DNA from: Leptotrichia sp. oral taxon 879 str. F0557
Lineage (GTDB): Bacteria > Fusobacteriota > Fusobacteriia > Fusobacteriales > Leptotrichiaceae
Direction of reading: 5' to 3'
Assembly (NCBI RefSeq): GCF_000469385.1
Contig: NZ_KI271290.1
Coordinates: 1 to 44,450, forward strand
DNA: 44,450 bases
The notes beneath the pieces are model-generated. The model was not told the DNA's origin and ran no database searches. It saw only the letters and a list, made by a program, of their open reading frames with translations. Position numbers and translations under genes: made by a program. Every line of letters begins with the position of its first letter. Position 1 is the stretch's first letter. This document shows positions 31,069 through 44,223 of this stretch, one piece after another.

Positions 31069-34000
31069 TTAGTAGATTGCTCTAAATCCAATTCCACCTC
31101 TTAAATTCTTACCTTTTGTATCATAACCAGCATTTACTGTTACACCAAATCTTGTGTTTTCTATTCCTATATTAAGATCGGCTTTTCCACTTCCACGTTT
31201 GTCATCCTTCTCGCCTCTTATGTTAAACCAGTCAGCTGTTGTATAACGGACTCTTGCCTTGTTATCAACATCTCCAACCTGTCCTAGTTCATTTTCATAA
31301 GCAAGTCCAAGTTTTGCAACAAATCTTGTTCTAAGTGCAAGTGGCTGGCTATACTTAAATTCTACACCAACTTCAGGTTTAATTGAATAATAGTCATTTG
31401 ATTTAACTTCCAGACGCATTTCACCTATATCCTCTTTTATTCCGCTAAATCCTCCATATTCAAGCTTTAAGCTTCCGTATGGTGAAATACTTATTCTCTG
31501 ACTTGCTCTAATATTTTTTCTAATTTCATTTTTTATAGTTGTTCCATATGAATGGAAGTTAGATTTAGCTTCAAAGATATCATCAACTACAAGGAATTTT
31601 CTCTTAGTTTCTCCGTTCCCCACGAATCCTTCTGCTGAAATAGTCCAGTTTAGCCCATTATTATGATCATCTCCAATAGGTATTGATTTATACATTCCAG
31701 CTTTTACAATGGATTGCTCTTCTGTTGAACCTCCAATATCGCTAAAGTCGAATTTATTCTTAACTGCTCCTGCATACCATCCACTTGATTCACCCATCCT
31801 TATAGTTTCATCTTCATGTACATAGGCAAATCCATAGGCATTATTCTTATAATCAATAACTCCTGCAGTATCAGTCTTGTAGTCTCCTTTCATTCCAAAT
31901 GCCTTTATTTTATTGGAATTTTTTGACTTCGCATCCCATTCGTTTCTTAAATAGTCAAATTCCTTGTTCAAAAGATTTTCAGTTGAAAATATTCTCTGCT
32001 GCACATTTGCATATTGGTGTCCCATCATTTCTTCATATGCTTGTGCCAATAGAACTTCTTCATTGTTTCCTATAGTATTCAGCTTATTAAATATTAATTT
32101 TTCCCTTGAATCAAGAGCATTAGCATCATATCTCTGCTCTAATCCGTCAGCAAAATTAAATTCATTTCCATTTCTTCTTACAAAAGCTGTATAAGGAATT
32201 TTTGTCATAAGTACACGTGTAATTTGCTGTGTTGCCGGATTTACTTCAGGTGTTGCCATCCACGTTAGTGAAGCTGAATATGGTGTGAAGTTAAAGATTC
32301 CAGCATTTATCTGATCAAGAAACGGCTGCAGTATTTGTCTTCCTATTATTACATCTTTCTTATTTGTAAGTACAGAAAACTCTGTTCCTATCAGAAGATC
32401 ACTGTTTATTCCAATATCAGTTGCTCCATCCAGATTAATCGGTCTTGTTCTTCCGAGTGTATCCACATATACTCCAAAATTTGATAATGCATAATTTACT
32501 GTTGGAGTTGTATAGTCTATTACTTGAACTTGATTTTCATCTAATATTACTCCGTTTCTTTGGATTGCCAATCTTCCATCAGGCAACTGCACAATTCCCG
32601 TTCCTCCAATAGTTTTGCTTGGATCTTTAGGAGCATAGTAATCTTCAGCTCCATTTGATGAAGTTATTTTTCCAGCTCCTGAATTTATCGCAGGTAATGT
32701 ATTGGCAGGTATTGCATCATCTCCTATTGGAAGATCATTTCCAGTTACACCTTTTGAATTTCCATCATAACGGACACCATAAGATCTAAGTCCACTAATA
32801 TTAATATTTCCATAGTTTTTAATCACGGATTTGTTACTTTCTGTACCTTTTATAAGTACCCCATAACTATTATCTGCATCAATGTTTATTGTTCCATAAT
32901 TTTCCAACGTACTTCCATTTAATACAGCAACTCCCACAAGTCCCTGAACGTTACTGTTACCTACATACGATCCAACTGTAGTTATAGTTCCTGTATTTAC
33001 AAATGTTGCACCATTATTCGCAAATACTCCCATCATTGTCTGAATTTTGTCAGTTGAAGTCGCTCCAGAAGCATCAAGATAAATATTTCCATTATTTCTT
33101 AAAGTTGTGCCGCTCTTATCCCCATACATTCCAATACTTAAATTTCCTGAAACATAAATATCTCTTTCATTTGTTACAGAGGCTCCATCAATAGCCGCCA
33201 TTCCAATTCCGTAAATAATATTATCTGGATCAGATTTATCAGTTTTTCCTATTTTTATTGTTCCTCTATTTATAGCATTTGATGTCCCTGTTACAAGAAT
33301 TCCTTGATTTCCAATTCCTTGCGATAAGTCAATTGTTCCGTTATTTAGGATATTTGCTCCATCTTTTCCATATATTGCTATAATTCCATTATTTATTCCA
33401 GATGTAATAGTAGCATTATTTGTAACTTCTGATTTACCTTCAGTATAAATAAATGTTGATTCTTTTCCTAGAGTAACATTTGTTGAAGAAGAATTTGAAT
33501 AAACATTCGTTCTGCTAAATCCAGGATTTGCAAGAATCACGCCGTAAGATTTATCTCCAACAACGAAGTCAGATGTATTATCTGTTATTACTACTCCGTT
33601 TGTTCCATAAACTCCTACAGGTTCACTATTCACTTCTGTCGCTGTATGATCTGCTACATTTATTTTTCCGCCTAAATTAGCAGTTCCTCCTTTTTTATAC
33701 ACACCAATTGCCTTATCAGCTACATTTATTTCAGAACTTGCTGTAGTTTCCACATTTCCATCTTCACTAAGTGAGTATATTCCAAACGAAGCTTCATCAA
33801 CATTTATTTTTCCACTGTTCTTTATATTGATTTTAAAGCCACTTTGTGCATAAATTCCAACTGTAGAATCATTTTTTACAGAAGTTGTGGTCTTATCAAC
33901 ATTTATTGTACCTGTATTTTCAAACGACTGTTCCATGGTACCTTCCAGATATGCTGCAATCGAACGTTTTCCAGTAATATTTATATTTCCATTATTTACA

Positions 34001-37000
34001 ATTGCTTTCACAAATGTCGATTTATTCTGCGAGAAAATTCCAATCGAATCATCACTTGAAAATTCCATATTTGCATTGTTTACTGCATTAGAATTTATTG
34101 AAACAATTCCTTTTGCCTTATTAGATATTCCCGTTATTTTTTTACCTGTAATAGTAGCCGATGAATTATCTACATAAATACCTGTAGATCCATTATTCAA
34201 TGTTATCTCATTCCATCCGCTAAATTCAGATACTCCGTTCATATAAATTCCTGTTCCTTTGGAAGTTACGATGATATCATTGTCATTCATTTTTGCCTTA
34301 CTGTCAATGATGAACAGCATTGGTTCTGAAGATGTTGTCAATGTCCCGCTATTGTTGTAGTTAAGTGTCGCATTATTTTCAAGGTAGGCAAGACTTCCAC
34401 TGTCTGAAAAGTCATAGTTTCCGCCATTCACATTTATTGTCGAATCATTTCCATATAATGTAAATCCTTTATTTCCAACTTTTACGTCTCCTGTCGTATC
34501 AAGAGTAGTCTTATGTTCCACATACATTCCAACCGAAGTTGTTTCCACTTTTCCAGTTACAGTATTCACAATGGAATCTCCAATTGTAATGTTTCCAGTA
34601 TTTGTAACTTTTGAGGCTCCTGAAGTTGCTGTCTTAGGAGAAACATATATTCCTGCCGAACCTTTATCTAGCGTTATATCTCCATTATTTACAATAGTTA
34701 TTGCTTTATGACCGTCTGCTGGGGCATTTGTCGCATAAATTCCCACAGATTTCTCTTTACCTGTTATCTCACCTTTATTTTCAACTTTATCAAATCCTAC
34801 AGAATAAATTGCTGCAGATCCATCTCCAACTTCAATTTTAGAAGTTGCTGCAGTTGTTATTGTCCCAATATTTTTGGTAGTCGATCCGCTGTAGTTTGCA
34901 GTTGTCTTGTTATAAATTCCATAGATTCCAGTAGATTTGTCTCCTATAATAATTTCTCCTGTATTAAGTCCTCTTGAAGAATCAAGGTACATCGCAGTAC
35001 TTGTAACTGCGTTTGAAAGATCAATTTTTCCTTTATTTTCAGCTTCATATCCTGCTGTTCCTACCCAAGTTAACCCAGGATTCTTATTACCATCTGCCAT
35101 AAGTCCAATAATATTTTTTGAACTTGGTTTGGCTTCAACAGTTACTCCTGATTGTATTATAGCTTCTCCATTAATAACGTGAGAAAGAATATTTCCTGTT
35201 TCAAGAGCGTTTCCGTTAGCTATTGTCAAATCACTTGATGTAATTGAGCTTCCTTCTGTTATTCTTGTTCTTTCTACAGAATGTCCATTTGTAACAAGTG
35301 TTCCTCCGTTATCATTAATAATTGCACCCTTTTGTCCAAAAATACCTACTCCATCTCCACCAAACTCAATTTTTGCTCCAGACTCAAAGTTGGCAGTTGC
35401 TCCACCTGTAACTATGGCACCAACTCCATTTTTACCGTTAAGTTTTATATCAGCTCCGCTTGCAATTATTACTGTTGAAGCAGATTTACCATCTGTTCTA
35501 TTTCCAATATAGATTCCTGTTCCAGCTGTAGTTCCATCTCCAATATTCATTGTTCCTGCATAAGTGATGTTACTTTTATTTTCAGCAAACAATCCAACCC
35601 CATTTTTACCTGCTGTTATATTCGCAGTCATATTTTTAGCCTGTTGTCCATCAGCATATATTCCGATTGCATAGAAATCATTTGAACCATCGGGACTCAG
35701 TACTGAATCTCCAACTTTTATTTCATCTGTATAAGCTGTAATATCAGCATTACCTTTCATAAGAAGTCCGATTATTCCTTTTCCTGTATTACCATTGGCA
35801 GTATAGTCAAGTTTAGATGTGTTTGCATCCAGAGTTCCTCCATCAAGATAAACTCCAACTCCATATCCTTTTATCTTTCCGATGTTTCCTCCGTAGAGCT
35901 TTCCTGTATCTGTCGCTGTTGTTCCTTTTACATAATAGGCAACCTGATTTTGTGATTTTTCATTCAGATCAATTTCTCCTGTTGATGTATTAGCTTTAGC
36001 TTCATCCGAAAGATATACCGCAACAGATGAATCCGCATCATCATTCAGGTTTATTTTCCCTACTTTCTTTATATCAGATTTTGGAGTGTAAATCCCTACT
36101 GTGTTCTTTTGCTTTAAATTAATTGTTCCTTTATTTTCCACAGTCGAATCTCCTAAATCTCCTTTATTCTTTGTAAACATTCCTGTAGAGCTTTCAGATT
36201 CTATATCAATCATTCCTGCATTTAGCAGTTTGATAGTTTTTCCTGAAGCACTTGATGAACCAAACATTCCAACAGAATTCTTAGATGTAGATTTTAATAT
36301 TATAGTTCCTTTGTTTTTAGCTTCAGCGTCATCTTTAGAAAATATTCCTGTTGATTTTTGTCCATGCAATTCAATATTTTTTTCATTTATTACTTTAGTT
36401 CCATTATCAACACCATACATTCCAATTACAGATTCTACTGAATCTGAAGGTCCTTGAATCAATTCATTATTTATAATTTCAGCATTTTTAGTAGCTAGCA
36501 TTCCAGTACCTTTTTTACCTTTTATAATGATATTTCCATCATTTACACCTTTTGTACCTGATTCTGTAACATAGATTCCTGTTGATTTACTATCATTTCC
36601 TGAACTAGGTGCTTCTATTGTTATTGTACCATCCGATGTATTGGTCACTTCTGATCCGTTTGTTCCATACATTCCTGTAGCTTCTTCATTAGAAATATTA
36701 ATTTCATTCTTGTTTTTAGCTACAGATTTATCAGCTAGCATTCCAACAGCCTTTTTCGACTTTAATTCAATTATTCCTTCATTTTCTGCAACTAAGTCTG
36801 TCTTTGAAGATTTTCCATTTTTAGCATATATTCCAACAGATTCTTCCATATCGACTTCTATTTTATTTTTATTACTTATTGTCAGCTTTTTAGCGGCTGT
36901 ACTTTCAAGCTCCCCGTAGATACCTGCGCTTTTCTTTCCAGTTCCAGTTTTAAGTATAATTTCTCCGCTGTTTTCAATAGTATTATCAGCTTTTGATCCA

Positions 37001-40000
37001 CTCGTAAATTTACCATAAATTCCAGCTGATTCTCCTTTATGAACTGTAATTTTGGCATTTTCAGCATTTACAGCATCACTGTCTTCAAGATATATTCCGG
37101 CTGATTTTTCTTCCTTTATTTCTATTTCTTTTTCGTTCGTTACTTTTGATCCTTTGCTTCCATAAATTCCGGCTGATTTCTTATCTTCCATTGTGATAGT
37201 TCCAGCATTTTTAACTGTACTTTTCTGAGCTGATATTCCTATGGATTCTTCGGATTTTGCAGTAATATTATCATTGTTGACTACTTCCAGCTTATCCTTG
37301 TCATTGTCCTCATCATTTACTGCAAACATTCCTACAGACTGCTTGCTTCCTACGGCAATATTTATATCCTTGTCATTCTGCAATGTCAGTTTGCTAGTTG
37401 CACTTTTCTCAACTTCACCGTAAATTCCAACATTCTTCGTTACACTTTCAATTTCAATTGCCCCTTTATTCAGTATTGTGTAATTGCTAGTCGATGTTTT
37501 AGACAATTTCCCATACATTCCTGCCGATCCGCTAGTTGCTCCTGAAGAACCGTTTATCGTTATTTTCGCATTTTCATCATTCATCGCGTTTGAGTCTAAC
37601 GCGTACATTCCTGCCGAATCTTCACTTGAAATAACTATGTTTTTTTTATTTGTTATTTCAGAATCATTGCTTCCATACATTCCTGCCGAATTTTTCTTCT
37701 TCACATTTATAACGCCTTCATTTTCTCCAATCGCCTTGTCAACAAAAATTCCAACTGTACTATCAACATCCAGATCGATTGTTCCTGTATTTATGGCTTT
37801 TCCTTTATTTCTGTCTCCTGAATTATTTTTAATATATATTCCAACAGAACTTTCTTGCCCAACAACTACACTGTTTTTATTATACACTGTTGTTTTTCCT
37901 GCTCCAGAACCAAGTTCAGCATATATTCCAGCTGACTGAGTTCCAGGAGGTGTTGCAGTCCCCTTTAAGTTTATTGTTCCTGTATTTTCGATAGTATAGT
38001 CCTTATTATCAGTATTTTTTGCAAATATTCCTGCTGATTCCTTACCTTCAACATTTATTGTCCCTTTATTTACAGGTGTAGAATTTTCAGTATAGATTGC
38101 AGCTGATTTTTGCCCTTCTACTGTAATAGTTCCACTTGTATTATTTGTTACTGTAGCTCCATTTTTACCAAGCAGTCCGGCAGAGGCACCACCGCTCATC
38201 TTAATAGTTCCGTCATTCGTGATAGTTTTTCCATCCGACAGCATTCCGACTGATTTTGAGTCATTTGCTGTATTTTTAAGATGAATAGTTCCAAGATTTT
38301 GAAGTACAGACTTAACTGTTCCGTAAATTCCTACAGATGTTTTTCCTTCCAGCTCTATTTTACCTGCAGCCGCATTAGTAACTTTAGACTGTTTCGCCAT
38401 TATCCCAATTGCTCCGTCAGCATTTGATGTTGAGACAATGTCCTTTTCATTCGTAACAACAATTTTGTTATCATCTCCAGTTTCATTCTGAGCATAAATC
38501 CCAATTGAATCCTTTATGCTGATTTCTATCTTATCTTTATTTTCTACGGTTAAATTTCCTGTAGCTCCTGCTTTTAACTGGGCATAGATTCCCACTCCTT
38601 GAGTTTCACTACCTGGAGAAGATGCTGTTCCTACATTTATAGTTCCTGAATTTTCAATTTTGTTTGTTTTTGAAAATACACCATAAATTCCGGCCGATTT
38701 TCCTTTTTCAGTACTTATAGTTCCTCCTGAAGCATTTGTAACTTGACTGTCATCTGCATAAATTCCGGCTGATTCAGTTTCCTTGGCAGTTATTGTACCT
38801 TCATTATTAATTGTAGATTCATTAGCTCCATAAATTCCGGCCGATTTTTCTTTCTCCGTAGTTATAGTTCCCCCTGAAGCATTTTCTATCGTACTTTTAT
38901 CTCCAAGCATCCCTACAGAAGCTTCATCTTTTGTCTCAATTGTACCTTTATTTTTCAATGTAGAATTTTCTATTCCATAAATCCCAATTGATTTTTTCTC
39001 TCCCACAGTAATTGTTCCTGAGGATTCATTCGTTCCTGTAGATGCCTTTAAATAAATACCTACAGCTTCCTCAGTTGCTGTCATATCAATTGTACCTTCA
39101 TTTTTTATATTAGCTCCACTTAGTCCTGAAACTGTAGTCTTCAAATTAGATTTAATCGTTTTTCCACTATTAATTGTAGCAGTACCCTGATTAGATACTA
39201 AAAACTGAGCTGTTTCATCAACATTTGAATATGTTGTCATGTCAATATCATCATCAACTTTTACTTTCGATCCTGTATCTCCATAAAGAAGTGTTGATTT
39301 AGCACCCATTTTAAGCACTGTCAAGTTAGATAAAGTTCCAGAACTTATAGTTCCTGTTCCTGTAGAGCCAAAATAAGCTAATGCCGCTCCATCTCCAACA
39401 CTAGTCTTTAAAGCGCTTATGGCAAATCCTGTACCAAACTTATCTGCATCTTCTGCATACAATCCAACCGTACCTTTCCCCAAAGTAAGTTCTGCATTTC
39501 CGTTAAATGTTACTGTCTTAGTTGAGGCGGCATCCATGTATACTCCTATTCCTGTATCATTCTTTGTTGAATCTCCAACATTAATTTTCCCAGATACAGT
39601 TCCTTGGGAATTCTTTACAAACATAGTAATTCCACCATTTTTAGCCGAAATTACTCCATCAGATGTGTTTGTAAATATTCCATTTTCAGTAAATAGTGCT
39701 ACTTTTCCACCAGCATCAGTAGAAACAGTACCTTCATTCGTAAACGTTCCACCATCTTGAACTACTGCATGGTACTTTGTACTTGAAATAGTTGCCCCAT
39801 TTTTATTTGTAGCAATAGAATTTTTTATATATAAACCAATAGAATTAGATCCTGTGGCAGTTATTTCAGCATTAGCATAGTTATTAAATTCAGCTGAAGC
39901 ATCGTTGTCAATTAACATGACTCCAAAACCATTAGTCCCCTCGACAGTAATTTTTTTCTTATTTCCACTAGGATCACTTGTGTTAGATTTTGTTTCTTTC

Positions 40001-42141
40001 AATAGCATTCCAATATTTTTATTCCCTTTTACTTCTATTGTTCCTTCATTATTAATTACAGAAGTTTCAGAAAATATCCCAATATTTTCACCAGCACCAC
40101 TTTCAATGGTTATTGTTCCTTCATTTTTTAATCCAGTTGAGTTACCTTTATTATTCCCAACTCTTATCCCCATACTTCTAGTTGCATTACCTTTTATAGT
40201 AATTGTTCCAGAAGCACTATTAACTATTGGTGTTTCATTAGCCACAACTTTAGTTAAATTTGAATTAAAAACATCCTGAGAATAAAGTCCAAATGAATTA
40301 TTTCCTGTTATATTTATTTCTTTATTATTAGTTGCTCCTCTAGGAACTTTATCAAGAATAGTCATTCCACCTGAATCATTACCGTTTACATTAATAATCC
40401 CATTATTTTCAAACTTAGAATCTCCTGCTAATTCATATTTTGGAGCAGTTGGAACAAAGTTTCCTGAACCATCTTTTTTACCAGGTAAATTTTCAATTTT
40501 AGTGACAACCATACCATGACTTTGATTTCCATTTAAAGTTACAGTTCCTTCGTTTATAGCTGTCATTTCCCAACTTTTTTGATTATTTACATTACCAGTA
40601 GGACTCCCTACAAAATTACTAGTTGCAAATCCTGCTGAATTATTTCCAGCCATATTTATTATACCTGTTTTTCCATTTTTTAGCGTATGTTTATTGCCTG
40701 CCTTAGAATCTTCATCTGTAAACAAAAGAGCTACTTGTTTATTATCCTCTCCTTCAATAGTTCCACTATTTATACCTGTAACTTTCATGTCTCTATTATG
40801 AGTATCTGGTTGTACTTCTATTCCAGCAGTTTGTGCAACTTTTAAATAAATAGTTCCTTTGTTTTCAAAAGAATATTCAGTTTTAGTAGATGTTCCATCC
40901 CATTCCACAGGATTAGGATATCCTGGCTTTGAGGTTGGTAATCCTGGATCCAATGTTACTGCTCTTTTCTTTGCTATATCAACAATCATAATAGTGTCAT
41001 CTGCTGTAGTGAAATCACCAGAATTAGTAATGTATTCTATAATTCCATTTTGCTTTCCTGATGGTGCCTCAGACAATTTATAAGTTTTACTATCTAAATT
41101 TCTATTTTGTCGTGTCATTGTAGTTCCTTGGTTATTTCCATATGCATCCAACCTTGGAACTTCAAAATTTATTGTACTTACTGATATACCTGGAACATTT
41201 ACTGTTGGTGCTGATGGCTTATTCACGGTAATTGTACTAACTTCTGAAACTCCTGGAGGTGTTATTGTCAAAGTATTTACTGTAGGTGTTGGCGGCGTTA
41301 TTTCCATGTTCAACTGTGGCGGCTCAATATTAAGACTGATTGATGGCGTTGACAAATTCATTGTGATATTTGGTGCAGTTACTGTTGGTGGTGTATCAGG
41401 TTCCTGTGGATTTGGAACATTGATAGTTACTGGATTCAGTCTAGGCAATGTTAACACAGGTGCTTCCAGAGGCGTGTTAACATTCAAGCTGATTGATGGT
41501 CTTACCACTTCCCTTGGCATATCAATCTGTGGTGTAATTGTTATTTCTTCTTTTAAAACAGATTTTGGACGTACATTTGCCATTATTTGAATTTCTACTT
41601 CTGGCTCTTGAACGTGTAATAATGAAGCTAACCCATAAGATGTTGATCCTACAGATGATGAATTAATTGGTGGATTTACAGCTCTTCTTCTATTTGACAA
41701 AGCTCCAGTTTCTCCCCAGTTTCCACGTCTATAAATTCCCTCAAAAGGATATTTTGAAGCCTTATCTCCTCTTCCTTTGTAAGCTCCATTATTCTTTGAC
41801 ATAAAAGTATTTGATCCAAATTGCCATGATTCCCATTTTGATTTTACAACATGGTCTCCCTGTTCCATCAGCTGAATTAATTCCAGATTCAATTCTTCTA
41901 TCGTTTCTTCATTTTCTTTTTTAGCTTTCTTTATGGCGGTACGTGTTTTGTCAGCTGACATTATAAGCTCTTTGTTTGCACGTTCATAAAGCACATTTGA
42001 AGATGTATTCACTCCAATTGAAAAAGTTATCATCCCCGTTATTAGATACGTGAATAGCAACGATTCCGTGTACTTGACATTCTTAGCCCTTTTAGCAAAG
42101 GCTTTTAAATCTTTTTTTGCCTGTTTTAAATTGTTACTCAT
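31069..42141 (-). CDS. giant type V autotransporter adhesin-like protein (fusobacterial type)
   Basis: The 3690-residue protein (roughly 380 kDa) fills a quarter of the window as one unbroken frame. The N-terminus (AKRAKNVKYTESLLF, then a hydrophobic segment ~28-46) is the extended signal region typical of fusobacterial autotransporters. A short coiled coil follows (~50-95), then a Pro/Thr/Val-rich section (~175-345) of repeated VNVPG- and PSISLN-like strands. The passenger (~380-3150) is built of dozens of ~20-25-residue units of the form (S)AGIYG...NKGTI.(V/I), predicting a long beta-helix stalk. The C-terminal ~280 residues (from KAFGMKG near 3412) form an outer-membrane beta-barrel ending in GIGFRAIY. 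AAGGAG lies 10 nt before the ATG. Ligand unknown; adhesion is inferred from the class. Confidence 0.93.
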   Translation of the reverse strand: MSNNLKQAKKDLKAFAKRAKNVKYTESLLFTYLITGMITFSIGVNTSSNVLYERANKELIMSADKTRTAIKKAKKENEETIEELNLELIQLMEQGDHVVKSKWESWQFGSNTFMSKNNGAYKGRGDKASKYPFEGIYRRGNWGETGALSNRRRAVNPPINSSSVGSTSYGLASLLHVQEPEVEIQIMANVRPKSVLKEEITITPQIDMPREVVRPSISLNVNTPLEAPVLTLPRLNPVTINVPNPQEPDTPPTVTAPNITMNLSTPSISLNIEPPQLNMEITPPTPTVNTLTITPPGVSEVSTITVNKPSAPTVNVPGISVSTINFEVPRLDAYGNNQGTTMTRQNRNLDSKTYKLSEAPSGKQNGIIEYITNSGDFTTADDTIMIVDIAKKRAVTLDPGLPTSKPGYPNPVEWDGTSTKTEYSFENKGTIYLKVAQTAGIEVQPDTHNRDMKVTGINSGTIEGEDNKQVALLFTDEDSKAGNKHTLKNGKTGIINMAGNNSAGFATSNFVGSPTGNVNNQKSWEMTAINEGTVTLNGNQSHGMVVTKIENLPGKKDGSGNFVPTAPKYELAGDSKFENNGIINVNGNDSGGMTILDKVPRGATNNKEINITGNNSFGLYSQDVFNSNLTKVVANETPIVNSASGTITIKGNATRSMGIRVGNNKGNSTGLKNEGTITIESGAGENIGIFSETSVINNEGTIEVKGNKNIGMLLKETKSNTSDPSGNKKKITVEGTNGFGVMLIDNDASAEFNNYANAEITATGSNSIGLYIKNSIATNKNGATISSTKYHAVVQDGGTFTNEGTVSTDAGGKVALFTENGIFTNTSDGVISAKNGGITMFVKNSQGTVSGKINVGDSTKNDTGIGVYMDAASTKTVTFNGNAELTLGKGTVGLYAEDADKFGTGFAISALKTSVGDGAALAYFGSTGTGTISSGTLSNLTVLKMGAKSTLLYGDTGSKVKVDDDIDMTTYSNVDETAQFLVSNQGTATINSGKTIKSNLKTTVSGLSGANIKNEGTIDMTATEEAVGIYLKASTGTNESSGTITVGEKKSIGIYGIENSTLKNKGTIETKDEASVGMLGDKSTIENASGGTITTEKEKSAGIYGANESTINNEGTITAKETESAGIYADDSQVTNASGGTISTEKGKSAGIYGVFSKTNKIENSGTINVGTASSPGSETQGVGIYAQLKAGATGNLTVENKDKIEISIKDSIGIYAQNETGDDNKIVVTNEKDIVSTSNADGAIGIMAKQSKVTNAAAGKIELEGKTSVGIYGTVKSVLQNLGTIHLKNTANDSKSVGMLSDGKTITNDGTIKMSGGASAGLLGKNGATVTNNTSGTITVEGQKSAAIYTENSTPVNKGTINVEGKESAGIFAKNTDNKDYTIENTGTINLKGTATPPGTQSAGIYAELGSGAGKTTVYNKNSVVVGQESSVGIYIKNNSGDRNKGKAINTGTIDLDVDSTVGIFVDKAIGENEGVINVKKKNSAGMYGSNDSEITNKKNIVISSEDSAGMYALDSNAMNDENAKITINGSSGATSGSAGMYGKLSKTSTSNYTILNKGAIEIESVTKNVGIYGEVEKSATSKLTLQNDKDINIAVGSKQSVGMFAVNDEDNDKDKLEVVNNDNITAKSEESIGISAQKSTVKNAGTITMEDKKSAGIYGSKGSKVTNEKEIEIKEEKSAGIYLEDSDAVNAENAKITVHKGESAGIYGKFTSGSKADNTIENSGEIILKTGTGKKSAGIYGELESTAAKKLTISNKNKIEVDMEESVGIYAKNGKSSKTDLVAENEGIIELKSKKAVGMLADKSVAKNKNEINISNEEATGMYGTNGSEVTNTSDGTITIEAPSSGNDSKSTGIYVTESGTKGVNDGNIIIKGKKGTGMLATKNAEIINNELIQGPSDSVESVIGMYGVDNGTKVINEKNIELHGQKSTGIFSKDDAEAKNKGTIILKSTSKNSVGMFGSSSASGKTIKLLNAGMIDIESESSTGMFTKNKGDLGDSTVENKGTINLKQKNTVGIYTPKSDIKKVGKINLNDDADSSVAVYLSDEAKANTSTGEIDLNEKSQNQVAYYVKGTTATDTGKLYGGNIGKIKGYGVGVYLDGGTLDANTSKLDYTANGNTGKGIIGLLMKGNADITAYTDEIKVGDSVLSPDGSNDFYAIGIYADGQQAKNMTANITAGKNGVGLFAENKSNITYAGTMNIGDGTTAGTGIYIGNRTDGKSASTVIIASGADIKLNGKNGVGAIVTGGATANFESGAKIEFGGDGVGIFGQKGAIINDNGGTLVTNGHSVERTRITEGSSITSSDLTIANGNALETGNILSHVINGEAIIQSGVTVEAKPSSKNIIGLMADGNKNPGLTWVGTAGYEAENKGKIDLSNAVTSTAMYLDSSRGLNTGEIIIGDKSTGIYGIYNKTTANYSGSTTKNIGTITTAATSKIEVGDGSAAIYSVGFDKVENKGEITGKEKSVGIYATNAPADGHKAITIVNNGDITLDKGSAGIYVSPKTATSGASKVTNTGNITIGDSIVNTVTGKVETTSVGMYVEHKTTLDTTGDVKVGNKGFTLYGNDSTINVNGGNYDFSDSGSLAYLENNATLNYNNSGTLTTSSEPMLFIIDSKAKMNDNDIIVTSKGTGIYMNGVSEFSGWNEITLNNGSTGIYVDNSSATITGKKITGISNKAKGIVSINSNAVNNANMEFSSDDSIGIFSQNKSTFVKAIVNNGNINITGKRSIAAYLEGTMEQSFENTGTINVDKTTTSVKNDSTVGIYAQSGFKINIKNSGKINVDEASFGIYSLSEDGNVETTASSEINVADKAIGVYKKGGTANLGGKINVADHTATEVNSEPVGVYGTNGVVITDNTSDFVVGDKSYGVILANPGFSRTNVYSNSSSTNVTLGKESTFIYTEGKSEVTNNATITSGINNGIIAIYGKDGANILNNGTIDLSQGIGNQGILVTGTSNAINRGTIKIGKTDKSDPDNIIYGIGMAAIDGASVTNERDIYVSGNLSIGMYGDKSGTTLRNNGNIYLDASGATSTDKIQTMMGVFANNGATFVNTGTITTVGSYVGNSNVQGLVGVAVLNGSTLENYGTINIDADNSYGVLIKGTESNKSVIKNYGNINISGLRSYGVRYDGNSKGVTGNDLPIGDDAIPANTLPAINSGAGKITSSNGAEDYYAPKDPSKTIGGTGIVQLPDGRLAIQRNGVILDENQVQVIDYTTPTVNYALSNFGVYVDTLGRTRPINLDGATDIGINSDLLIGTEFSVLTNKKDVIIGRQILQPFLDQINAGIFNFTPYSASLTWMATPEVNPATQQITRVLMTKIPYTAFVRRNGNEFNFADGLEQRYDANALDSREKLIFNKLNTIGNNEEVLLAQAYEEMMGHQYANVQQRIFSTENLLNKEFDYLRNEWDAKSKNSNKIKAFGMKGDYKTDTAGVIDYKNNAYGFAYVHEDETIRMGESSGWYAGAVKNKFDFSDIGGSTEEQSIVKAGMYKSIPIGDDHNNGLNWTISAEGFVGNGETKRKFLVVDDIFEAKSNFHSYGTTIKNEIRKNIRASQRISISPYGSLKLEYGGFSGIKEDIGEMRLEVKSNDYYSIKPEVGVEFKYSQPLALRTRFVAKLGLAYENELGQVGDVDNKARVRYTTADWFNIRGEKDDKRGSGKADLNIGIENTRFGVTVNAGYDTKGKNLRGGIGFRAIY

Positions 42142-42508
42142 ACTCTAAATTCTCCTTTTTATATTTTTCTTTTTTCAATTTTAGATAACCAATCAGCTTT
42201 TATTCATACTAATTATCTATTTTCTAAATTTTAAATCTTTATTACTCTGTAATAATTACAATTTTTTTACTATCCATAATTATAGCCAATCATATCTAAA
42301 ACTGTTATTTTCTCAATACCATTAAATATATAAATTTATGATATTTTTAAACTGATTGGCTTCTAAATTATGTTATTTAATTTTTTGCTAATAAAACTAC
42401 CTTAAAATCAAATTCAAAAACTATTCTATTCAAATCCCAAAACTACTTTACTATTTAGATTTTAAAGGAGTCTAAATACATTTCAAATCTAAAATTTGAA
42501 ATTATTTT
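42142..42508 (-). promoter_or_regulatory. long structured leader of the autotransporter mRNA
   Basis: No gene lies here. In the minus-strand RNA, segment A (42367-42352, TTTAGAAGCCAATCAG) can pair with segment B (42292-42284, TGATTGGCT, 9 bp) or with segment C (42196-42180, about 16 bp with one bulge and a G-U pair). The choices exclude each other, and C ends about 22 nt before the ribosome site. Two more dyads lie near the 5' end: ATTTCAAAT/ATTTGAAAT (42480-42502) and ATTTAGA/TCTAAAT (42453-42477). No known riboswitch class is recognised. Confidence 0.45.
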
Positions 42509-42515
42509 TCGTAGT

Positions 42516-42544
42516 ATTATAACATTTTTTTATTTCCATTACAA
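42516..42544 (-). promoter_or_regulatory. promoter of the autotransporter gene
   Basis: On the minus strand TTGTAA (42544-42539), 17 nt, perfect TATAAT (42521-42516). The start near 42509 implies a leader of about 368 nt. Confidence 0.65.
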
Positions 42545-42549
42545 CAAAA

Positions 42550-42584
42550 AAATCTCTCTTTTTTATATAAATTTAGAGAGATTT
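42550..42584 (-). terminator. terminator of gpmI
   Basis: A perfect 9-bp stem AAATCTCTC/GAGAGATTT with a 17-nt AT-rich loop; a T-run follows on the minus strand. It lies 57 bp after the gpmI stop. Confidence 0.85.
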
Positions 42585-42640
42585 ATTTAAATATACTGTT
42601 TTTATATTGTCTTTAAAATTATTTTTTAATTATAAAACTA

Positions 42641-44176
42641 TTATTTTATAATTAATGTGCTTCCATCCATTTCAGCTGGTTTTTCCAATCCTAATAAATC
42701 AAGCATTGTTGGAGTAATATCAGCCAGTTTTCCATCTGTTCTCAATTTTGCATCTTTCATATCGTTTGTAATGAAAATGAACGGAACTGGATTTACAGTG
42801 TGTGCTGTATGAGGTTCTTTAGTTTCAGGATTTACTAATAAGTCAGCATTTCCGTGATCTGCTGTAATTAATACTGCACCATCAAGTTCCAATACTTTTC
42901 TTACAATTTGTCCTGTACAGTTGTCTACTGCTTGACAAGCTTGAATAACAGCATCAACATTTCCTGTATGTCCAACCATGTCAGGATTTGCGAAGTTTAA
43001 TACAACTGTGTCAACTTTTCCAGTATTTAATTCTTTAATTAAGTTTTCTTTAACTTCATAAGCACTCATTTCAGGCTGTAAATCATAAGTTGCAACTTTT
43101 GGTGAATCAGATAACAATCTGATTTCTCCTGGATATGGCTCCTCTTTTCCACCATTGAAGAAGAATGTAACGTGTGCATATTTTTCAGTTTCTGCTGTTC
43201 TTACTTGAATTAATCCAGCTTTTGATACAACTTCCCCAAATCCATTTATAATTGTTTCAGGCGGGAATGCCACTGGTGAACTGAATGTTGCATCATATTG
43301 AGCCATTGTAGCAAAGTTTACTTTAGGATAAACTTTTCTTGTAAATCCATTAAATTCAGGGTCAACAAATGTTCTAGTTAATTGTCTAGCTCTATCAGGT
43401 CTAAAGTTTGCAAAAATTACACCATCTCCATCTTTAATTAATCCATTGTCTTTTGAACCGATTTTAACAGGTTTTACAAATTCGTCTGTAATTCCTTCTG
43501 CATAAGAATTTCTGATTGCTTCATCAGCAGTAGCCGCCAAGTTTCCTTCTCCAGAAGTTAGGGCATTGTAGGCAAGTTCCACTCTGTCCCAGTTGTTATC
43601 TCTGTCCATTGCATAATATCTTCCAACAACTGTAGCAATTTTTCCTACACCAAGTTCATCCAATGCTTTTTGCAATTGTGCCAAGTACTCTACTCCACTT
43701 TCAGGGGCAGTATCTCTTCCATCCATAATCGCATGAACATAAACTTCTGTAAGTCCTTTTTTCTTAGCCATATCAACTAACCCAATTAAGTGGTCAATGT
43801 GGCAGTGAACTCCACCATCAGAAGTTAATCCTGTAATATGTAAAGCTTTTCCATTAGCTTTTGTAGTTTCCATAATATCTGATAACACTTTATTTTCTAA
43901 AATTGTACCTTCTTTAATAGCTTTTGAGATTTTTGGCAACATTTGGTAAACTACTCTTCCAGCACCAATATTTGTATGCCCAACTTCAGAATTTCCAAAC
44001 TGTCCTTCAGGCAGCCCAACAAATTCTCCATCTGCTCTCAATTCAGTATGAGGGTATTCTTTAAGATAATTGTTAAAATTAACTGGATGAGCCAATTTTA
44101 CTCCATCAACTTCATTATCGTGATGATTCATCCCCCATCCATCCAAAATTATTAAAACTACTGGTCTTTTTTTCAT
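42641..44176 (-). CDS. gpmI: 2,3-bisphosphoglycerate-independent phosphoglycerate mutase
   Basis: GpmI interconverts 3- and 2-phosphoglycerate in glycolysis, using two Mn ions and a phosphoserine intermediate. From the ATG at 44176 (AAGGAAG upstream; an ATG six codons earlier has no ribosome site) the protein has 511 residues, as expected. Visible are the alkaline-phosphatase-like start LIILDGWG with Asp12, GNSEVGHTNIGAGR with nucleophile Ser63, HIHGLTSDGGVH-type sequence (HITGLTSDGGVHCHIDHL), MDGRDTAPESG, the FRPDRARQLT motif and the metal ligands in NFANPDMVGHTG and ITADHGNAD. It is monocistronic. Confidence 0.98.
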   Translation of the reverse strand: MKKRPVVLIILDGWGMNHHDNEVDGVKLAHPVNFNNYLKEYPHTELRADGEFVGLPEGQFGNSEVGHTNIGAGRVVYQMLPKISKAIKEGTILENKVLSDIMETTKANGKALHITGLTSDGGVHCHIDHLIGLVDMAKKKGLTEVYVHAIMDGRDTAPESGVEYLAQLQKALDELGVGKIATVVGRYYAMDRDNNWDRVELAYNALTSGEGNLAATADEAIRNSYAEGITDEFVKPVKIGSKDNGLIKDGDGVIFANFRPDRARQLTRTFVDPEFNGFTRKVYPKVNFATMAQYDATFSSPVAFPPETIINGFGEVVSKAGLIQVRTAETEKYAHVTFFFNGGKEEPYPGEIRLLSDSPKVATYDLQPEMSAYEVKENLIKELNTGKVDTVVLNFANPDMVGHTGNVDAVIQACQAVDNCTGQIVRKVLELDGAVLITADHGNADLLVNPETKEPHTAHTVNPVPFIFITNDMKDAKLRTDGKLADITPTMLDLLGLEKPAEMDGSTLIIK

Positions 44177-44223
44177 AATCTTTCTTCCTTCCATTTTTTA
44201 AATAACTTTCTTTTCCTATGTCT

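What the first reader, a model, noticed from the sequence alone, without database searches (positions are those of the whole stretch)
42180..42508. Autotransporter leader of ~370 nt with mutually exclusive pairings
Segment A (42352-42367) can form a 9-bp helix with B (42284-42292) or a ~16-bp helix with C (42180-42196), and C is next to the ribosome site. Two extra dyads lie at the 5' end. An A/B versus A/C switch is the arrangement of a riboswitch, thermosensor or protein-controlled leader, and would fit control of a costly 3690-residue surface protein. The CCAATCA core recurring three times might instead be repeated DNA-binding sites.
Basis: partly seen in the sequence, partly recalled or inferred. 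Interest (0 to 1): 0.58.

Follow-up and report, generated by a model that had tools for sequence, protein, structure and literature searches.

The report
Peroxide-regulator box in adhesin leader
The long untranslated start of a giant surface-protein gene in an oral bacterium (Leptotrichia) carries a conserved RNA hairpin next to what looks like a binding site for the peroxide-sensing repressor PerR, suggesting that oxidative stress controls this surface protein.

Summary
The A/B helix is real. The A/C alternative exists in the window but is not conserved, so the proposed switch is not supported. The leader (P1 to ATG, about 367 nt) precedes a 3,690-aa fuso_auto_Nterm autotransporter. P1 is present in all 11 orthologues examined; A/B pairing recurs in 8 of 11 (weakly in one), in two genera, with compensatory changes and loops of 31-228 nt. 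In the window A/B has P~0.99 and A/C 0.004; C folds into its own hairpin. Near-RBS complementarity to A recurs in 3 of 8 species, at unrelated positions.

It is close to a box found upstream of dps, ahpF-like, sodA and pdhA genes, perfect in the second genus, and distinct from the box before zur. A PerR-like Fur protein is encoded beside a ferritin gene. Best reading: a PerR operator inside the transcribed leader, coupled by fixed spacing to an RNA rod; derepression by peroxide or metal loss is inferred. Whether PerR blocks elongation from P1 or a weak internal promoter is unresolved. Nothing was tested at the bench.

The parts
42516..42544 (-). Promoter P1: TTGTAA, 17-nt spacer, TATAAT, with TG extension; start of transcription inferred near 42509
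   Evidence: Scan hit 10/12 with TG; same promoter in 10 of 10 Leptotrichia orthologues and in G002
42383..42508 (-). Copy of a dispersed AT-rich intergenic element; holds the 5' dyads and CTCCTTT (42464-42470), which can pair with the SD
   Evidence: score 93 against shuffle maximum 60; among 10 leaders clear only in G000 and G006, borderline in G008 and G016
42366..42372 (-). Rod, lower helix, 5' arm CATAATT
   Evidence: compensatory AU to GC in G007; lost in G002
42353..42361 (-). Rod, middle helix, 5' arm (segment A)
   Evidence: CG to UG to UA series at one pair
42345..42352 (-). Rod, upper helix, 5' arm GTTTAAAA
   Evidence: GC, GU, AU at column 28-55 and UA to CG in G002
42294..42301 (-). 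Rod, upper helix, 3' arm
42284..42292 (-). Rod, middle helix, 3' arm (segment B)
42275..42281 (-). Rod, lower helix, 3' arm AATTATG (overlaps a TATAAT at 42279-42284, possible P2 -10 without a -35)
42262..42274 (-). Linker of fixed length, sequence not conserved
   Evidence: B to palindrome 32 nt in 7 of 7 and in G002
42247..42261 (-). Candidate PerR operator TTGTAATTATTACAG (14 of 15 to TTGTAATNATTACAA)
42182..42219 (-). Local hairpin C'/C (TAGATAATTAGT / ATTGGTTATCTA)
   Evidence: pairs at about 0.9; similar hairpin at this place in G006, G008, G014
42150..42158 (-). Shine-Dalgarno AAAGGAGAA
31069..42141 (-). Autotransporter gene, 3690 aa, fuso_auto_Nterm domain; RadD-like but below the RadD cut-off

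Best explanation
The leader is a PerR-controlled 5' untranslated region. P1 makes a long leader whose nascent RNA folds into a rod (A/B); 13 nt after the rod the DNA carries a PerR box. Metal-loaded PerR binds the box inside the transcribed leader and lowers adhesin transcription, either by blocking polymerase coming from P1 or by covering a weak internal promoter at the TATAAT in the rod's 3' arm; peroxide or metal loss would relieve it. Shown by sequence: P1, the conserved pairing, the box, its fixed spacing, the same box before dps, ahp, sod and pdhA genes, a PerR-like protein. Inferred: that PerR binds here, the direction of control, and what the rod contributes (placing or protecting the transcript at the stalled polymerase is my guess).
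For: Box: 14/15 in G000, G006, G008, G014; 13/15 in G005 and G012; 15/15 in G002; so 7 of 11 orthologues within 2 mismatches at the aligned place. A match this good in a shuffled window leader: 1 in 1000. Enrichment of the box at up to 1 mismatch over 13 Leptotrichia genomes: 198 places against 49 for the reversed control (sums). All 15 perfect boxes whose surroundings I looked at, of 19 in the genus, precede dps (5), ahpF-like (8) or pdhA (2) genes. sodA has one at 1 mismatch, perR-ferritin one at 2 mismatches in 2 of 4 genomes looked at. PerR-like protein: best PDB match B. subtilis PerR, E 2e-24, with the Asp of 'RFD/RYD' and the His and Cys ligands aligned (ligand roles recalled). The other full-length Fur protein sits before a znuA-like gene and its promoter has a different box, TTGCGAATNATTTGCAA, in 5 of 5 loci. 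Spacing B to box 32 nt in 8 of 8 while A-B gaps run 31-228. Rod: 90.5% of cells paired against 27.5-39% slid; 5 pairs changed on both sides.
Against: 3 of 11 orthologues (G010, G015, G016) lack the module, and G007 has 4 mismatches at the box, so PerR control cannot be universal. In G010 and G016 weak 2-mismatch boxes lie elsewhere. In dps, ahpF-like and perR promoters the box lies directly behind the -10; here it is 17 bp behind a TATAAT with no conserved -35 (best 3-4 of 6) and about 250 nt from P1. At up to 1 mismatch, 6 of 13 listed boxes of the window's genome are inside genes, so some near matches are chance; in G002 the box is not above control (5 against 11). An RNA hairpin UGUAANNNUUACA could also keep the palindrome.
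Confidence: 0.6

Rival explanations
1. RNA-only element: the rod and the palindrome hairpin act as an mRNA stability or sRNA/protein-binding element; the palindrome is kept as RNA and resembles a PerR box by chance.
For: Rod pairing conserved with compensatory changes in 8 leaders; the palindrome is able to pair in RNA; rod at P 0.80-0.99 in 6 of 7 and about 0.9-1.0 in G002.
Against: The palindrome's conserved letters equal the box before dps and ahpF-like genes and are perfect in G002; no compensatory change in its stem.
Confidence: 0.2
2. A/B versus A/C switch, with A freed to pair near the ribosome site.
For: A/C significant in the window (p 0.0005), G005 (0.0015) and G002 (0.0045, partner on the SD itself).
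Against: Absent in 5 of 8; partners not homologous; A/B favoured by 6.1 kcal/mol and transcribed first; C in its own hairpin.
Confidence: 0.06
3. A sub-version of the best explanation (its confidence overlaps): a second promoter P2 inside the leader (TATAAT 42279-42284) with the PerR box as its ordinary operator; the rod is a by-product or serves only the P1 transcript.
For: TATAAT 6 of 6 letters in 6 of 8, TATATT in G002; lost together with the box in G007; fixed distance to the box.
Against: No -35 above 4 of 6, no TGn; upstream letters change in step with the pairing rather than with a -35.
Confidence: 0.3
4. Ordinary AT-rich leader with chance dyads and dispersed repeats, no regulatory role.
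For: 3 of 11 orthologues lack it; G015 has a 109-nt leader; the 5' third is a dispersed element.
Against: Conservation across two genera and a change of genomic neighbourhood; covariation; box.
Confidence: 0.08

Closest known systems
PerR operators of the Fur family (7-1-7 palindromes; B. subtilis PerR box recalled as TTATAATNATTATAA)
   Same: 15-bp palindrome of the same geometry, in front of dps, ahp, sod genes; PerR-like protein present
   Different: G and C at positions 3 and 13; in this leader the box lies about 250 nt inside the transcript and behind an RNA rod, not at the promoter
CarR control of radD in Fusobacterium nucleatum (PMC12186487, abstract and passages read)
   Same: Transcriptional control of a RadD-type fusobacterial autotransporter adhesin
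   Different: Two-component regulator, 17-bp motif next to the promoter, start 8 nt before the RBS of radA; no long leader
Transcription roadblock by DNA-bound repressors (CodY and CcpA named in PMC4324032; intragenic Zur boxes there, passages read)
   Same: Repressor site well inside the transcribed region; a Fur-family protein tested there
   Different: That paper found cis-repression by intragenic Zur boxes but no change in a zur mutant; no linked RNA structure
Riboswitches, RNA thermometers, protein-controlled leaders
   Same: Long structured leader
   Different: No Rfam match, no conserved RBS-masking alternative

Membership tests
PerR operator | Match to the 7-1-7 box used at this organism's peroxide genes | tested here: met
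   14/15 in the window, 15/15 in G002
PerR operator | A PerR protein in the genome | tested here: met
   Fur-family protein nearest B. subtilis PerR, best NCBIfam hit PerR but under its cut-off (101.9 of 180); in G000 itself the gene is cut by a contig end
PerR operator | Site at or overlapping a promoter | tested here: inconclusive
   17 bp behind a TATAAT without -35
PerR operator | PerR binding and peroxide response | not testable with these tools
   Needs bench work
Zur operator | Same box as the zur-znu promoter | tested here: not met
   zur promoter carries TTGCGAATNATTTGCAA in 5 of 5 loci
Structured cis-RNA | Compensatory changes at conserved pairs | tested here: met
   5 of 25 pairs changed on both sides; shuffle control 24 of 500 for that count, 2 of 500 for the covariation score
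Riboswitch or thermosensor | Conserved mutually exclusive pairing that masks the RBS or a terminator | tested here: not met
   A/C absent in 5 of 8; SD open in 7 of 10; no terminator-like site in 42000-42800
Known Rfam family | Score over gathering cut-off | tested here: not met
   0 matches; best weak ones are chance

The most novel reading that the evidence does not exclude
The rod and the PerR box form one co-transcriptional device. The invariant 32 nt from B to the box would put a polymerase whose front edge touches bound PerR with its active site in the B arm, so that A waits unpaired until the polymerase is let through; folding of the rod then prevents backtracking or marks read-through. 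A redox repressor and a nascent-RNA helix would thus be geared together to control elongation into an 11-kb adhesin gene.
Probability: 0.12. Interest if true: 0.82.

Novelty: new variant of a known kind. Interest (0 to 1): 0.52.

Why it matters
It would tie a giant adhesin of an anaerobic oral bacterium to peroxide and metal sensing; oral streptococci make peroxide (recalled), so adhesion could answer to neighbours. It also offers a natural test case of a repressor site set at a fixed distance behind a conserved nascent-RNA helix. In the listings of ten answered paper searches I saw no report of PerR control of a fusobacterial adhesin; this covers only the held library.

Tried and rejected
Riboswitch or other known RNA family: no Rfam match. 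A/C switch: see above. Thermosensor: SD accessibility hardly changes with temperature in nearly all leaders (G006 moves from 0.26 to 0.62); the masking CTCCTTT lies in the dispersed element, found clearly only in G000 and G006. Repeated CCAATCA protein sites: not enriched in the window; the A side does not carry the TATAAT of the B side, and the arms change in step as RNA pairs. Zur box: rejected. CarR: I read passages only; its motif letters were not in them, so CarR was not tested. Short ORF starting at the ATG at 42275-42277: a stop codon follows at once or after two codons in several species (read by eye). Module elsewhere in the genome or at paralogues: model R1 found it in 8 of 33 family genomes at E<=1, seven at orthologue leaders and one chance hit inside a coding region of G015 (31.3 bits); it missed G007 there, and G005 scored 30.7, below that chance hit, although both were in the training set, so G005 and G007 rest on synteny and aligned letters. 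None among 20 paralogue leaders or 17 further ones.

Weak points of the counts: alignments A1 and A2 had the A-B loops cut out and four A put in their place; G014's upper helix is out of register there and counts as unpaired at three cells although it pairs in the +1 register. Model R1 was built from 7 sequences.

Full report
Setting. The window lies in a Leptotrichia genome: a same-genus genome (G007) has the contig length and coordinates of L. hongkongensis JMUB5056. Gene 31069-42141 (minus strand, 3690 aa) has the fuso_auto_Nterm domain (E 1.4e-42) and a RadD-like C-terminus far below the RadD cut-off (409 of 3500 bits). Upstream is gpmI (42641-44194). Promoter P1 (42516-42544) is in 10 of 10 Leptotrichia orthologues and in G002, another genus, where the upstream gene is a different one. 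Leaders run from 109 to 576 nt in Leptotrichia and 219 nt in G002. Three more Leptotrichia genomes (G009, G011, G013) have no close orthologue (best 53-63% identity).

What was claimed and what holds. A/B and A/C both exist in the window and both beat shuffles. In the ensemble of the whole leader A/B has probability about 0.99 and A/C 0.004; forcing A/C costs 6.1 kcal/mol. C is about 0.9 paired with C' in a local hairpin. Of 7 leaders examined, hairpins at that place appear in G000, G006, G008 and G014; in three of them the region folds better than shuffles (z -2.07, -2.65, -2.47), in G006 not (z -0.71). So there is one dominant fold, not a balanced switch.

The rod is conserved. Seven gpmI-linked leaders and G002 share a middle (9 bp) and upper (about 8 bp) helix, the seven also a lower one (7-8 bp), around a loop of very different length; the A-B gap is 40 to 228 nt in the seven and 31 nt in G002. 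On 8 leaders, 90.5% of 200 cells pair, against 27.5-39% when slid; 5 of 25 pairs change on both sides; no shuffle of 500 reaches the paired percentage and 2 of 500 the covariation score, but 24 of 500 reach the count of both-side pairs. Examples: CG, UG, UA at column 21-63; GC, GU, AU at 28-55; AU to GC at 10-71 in G007; UA to CG at 30-53 in G002. Against: the lower helix is gone in G002, G007 has a two-pair mismatch in the middle helix and folds otherwise (P 0.01), and with 8 related sequences the evidence is good, not overwhelming. G010, G015 and G016 have P1 but none of this.

The palindrome. Downstream of B, always 32 nt from its first base to the TGTAA (7 of 7; G002), lies TTGTAATTATTACAG, while the linker between has no conserved sequence. 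Searching the genus for TTGTAATNATTACA showed that most other hits are the full 15-bp palindrome TTGTAATNATTACAA. Its neighbours are dps, an AhpF/thioredoxin-reductase-like flavoprotein, and pyruvate dehydrogenase E1 alpha, in all 15 of the 19 perfect sites that I looked at; with 1 mismatch also sodA; in G002 with 1 mismatch dps and an ahpC-like gene. Families: for the window's genome; the relatives' copies and the ahpC-like gene were named by eye. At up to 1 mismatch: 198 forward places in 13 genomes against 49 of the reversed control, but 5 against 11 in G002. Of the 13 listed (of 16) in the window's genome, 6 are before genes (dps, ahpF-like, pdhA, sodA, a ribH-like gene, this leader), 1 in another intergenic stretch, 6 inside genes. 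So single near matches can be chance. What raises this one is its place in 7 of 11 orthologues, the fixed spacing, and the perfect copy in G002.

Which regulator. The window's genome has two over-cut-off Fur-family matches plus a weak third; the relatives G006, G007, G012 and G015 have the same two full-length proteins, two of them with a further partial hit. One is followed by a znuA-like gene and its promoter has a different palindrome, TTGCGAATNATTTGCAA (5 of 5 loci): Zur. The other is followed by a ferritin gene, is nearest to B. subtilis PerR among solved structures (2fe3, E 2e-24) and aligns at the PerR aspartate and the metal and zinc ligands (roles of residues recalled). Gene content and elimination make PerR the likely reader of the box; nothing here shows binding.

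How it may work. PerR bound at the box would stop polymerase from P1 or cover P2. P2 has a perfect -10 in 6 of 8 but no -35 (best 4 of 6 in G000 and G006, 3 in the other five of the 7 tested), and the letters upstream of it follow the pairing. Roadblocks by DNA-bound regulators are known in B. subtilis; a paper on Zur names CodY and CcpA and reports cis-repressive intragenic Zur boxes, though without a change in a zur mutant (PMC4324032, passages read). In F. nucleatum radD is under CarR near its promoter (PMC12186487, passages read). Polymerase dimensions behind the coupled-device idea are recalled. A's complementarity near the RBS in 3 of 8 species is unexplained; in G002 it covers the SD. 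I keep it as an open oddity, not a mechanism.

The 5' third. 42383-42508 is a copy of an AT-rich intergenic element dispersed in the genus and in G002, on both strands; in the leaders it is clear only in G000 and G006, above all shuffles but borderline in G008 and G016.

Noticed in passing
window 42383-42508; L199-L210: Dispersed AT-rich intergenic element of about 125 nt, both orientations, in several Leptotrichia species and in G002; may be a mobile or regulatory repeat.
   Followed up: partly
L038, L042, L043 (last ~90 nt before the start codon); L055 and L064 upstream regions: Another repeated stretch (about TGTTTATTGGAATTTTTATACTTTTACAAATGGC) appears before the autotransporter start in G012, G010 and G016 and before an unrelated gene; seen by eye.
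   Followed up: no
L190:1501-1515 (G002): A perfect PerR-type box about 130 nt upstream of what looks like a small RNA gene with TTGACA/TAATAT promoter and a terminator hairpin (read by eye).
   Followed up: no
L140, L146-L149: The zur-znu promoter carries its own conserved palindrome TTGCGAATNATTTGCAA, a likely Zur box of Leptotrichia.
   Followed up: partly
L143 and L145 upstream of perR: TTGTAATGGATACAA in front of perR, right behind the -10 in L145: possible autoregulation.
   Followed up: partly
L061 (G014:C14): The 5' end and leader of an autotransporter gene are repeated in tandem; extra N-terminal fragments also.
   Followed up: no
L143:109-576 and 868-1362: In G007 the ferritin gene next to perR is duplicated, the second copy with a changed end.
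   Followed up: no
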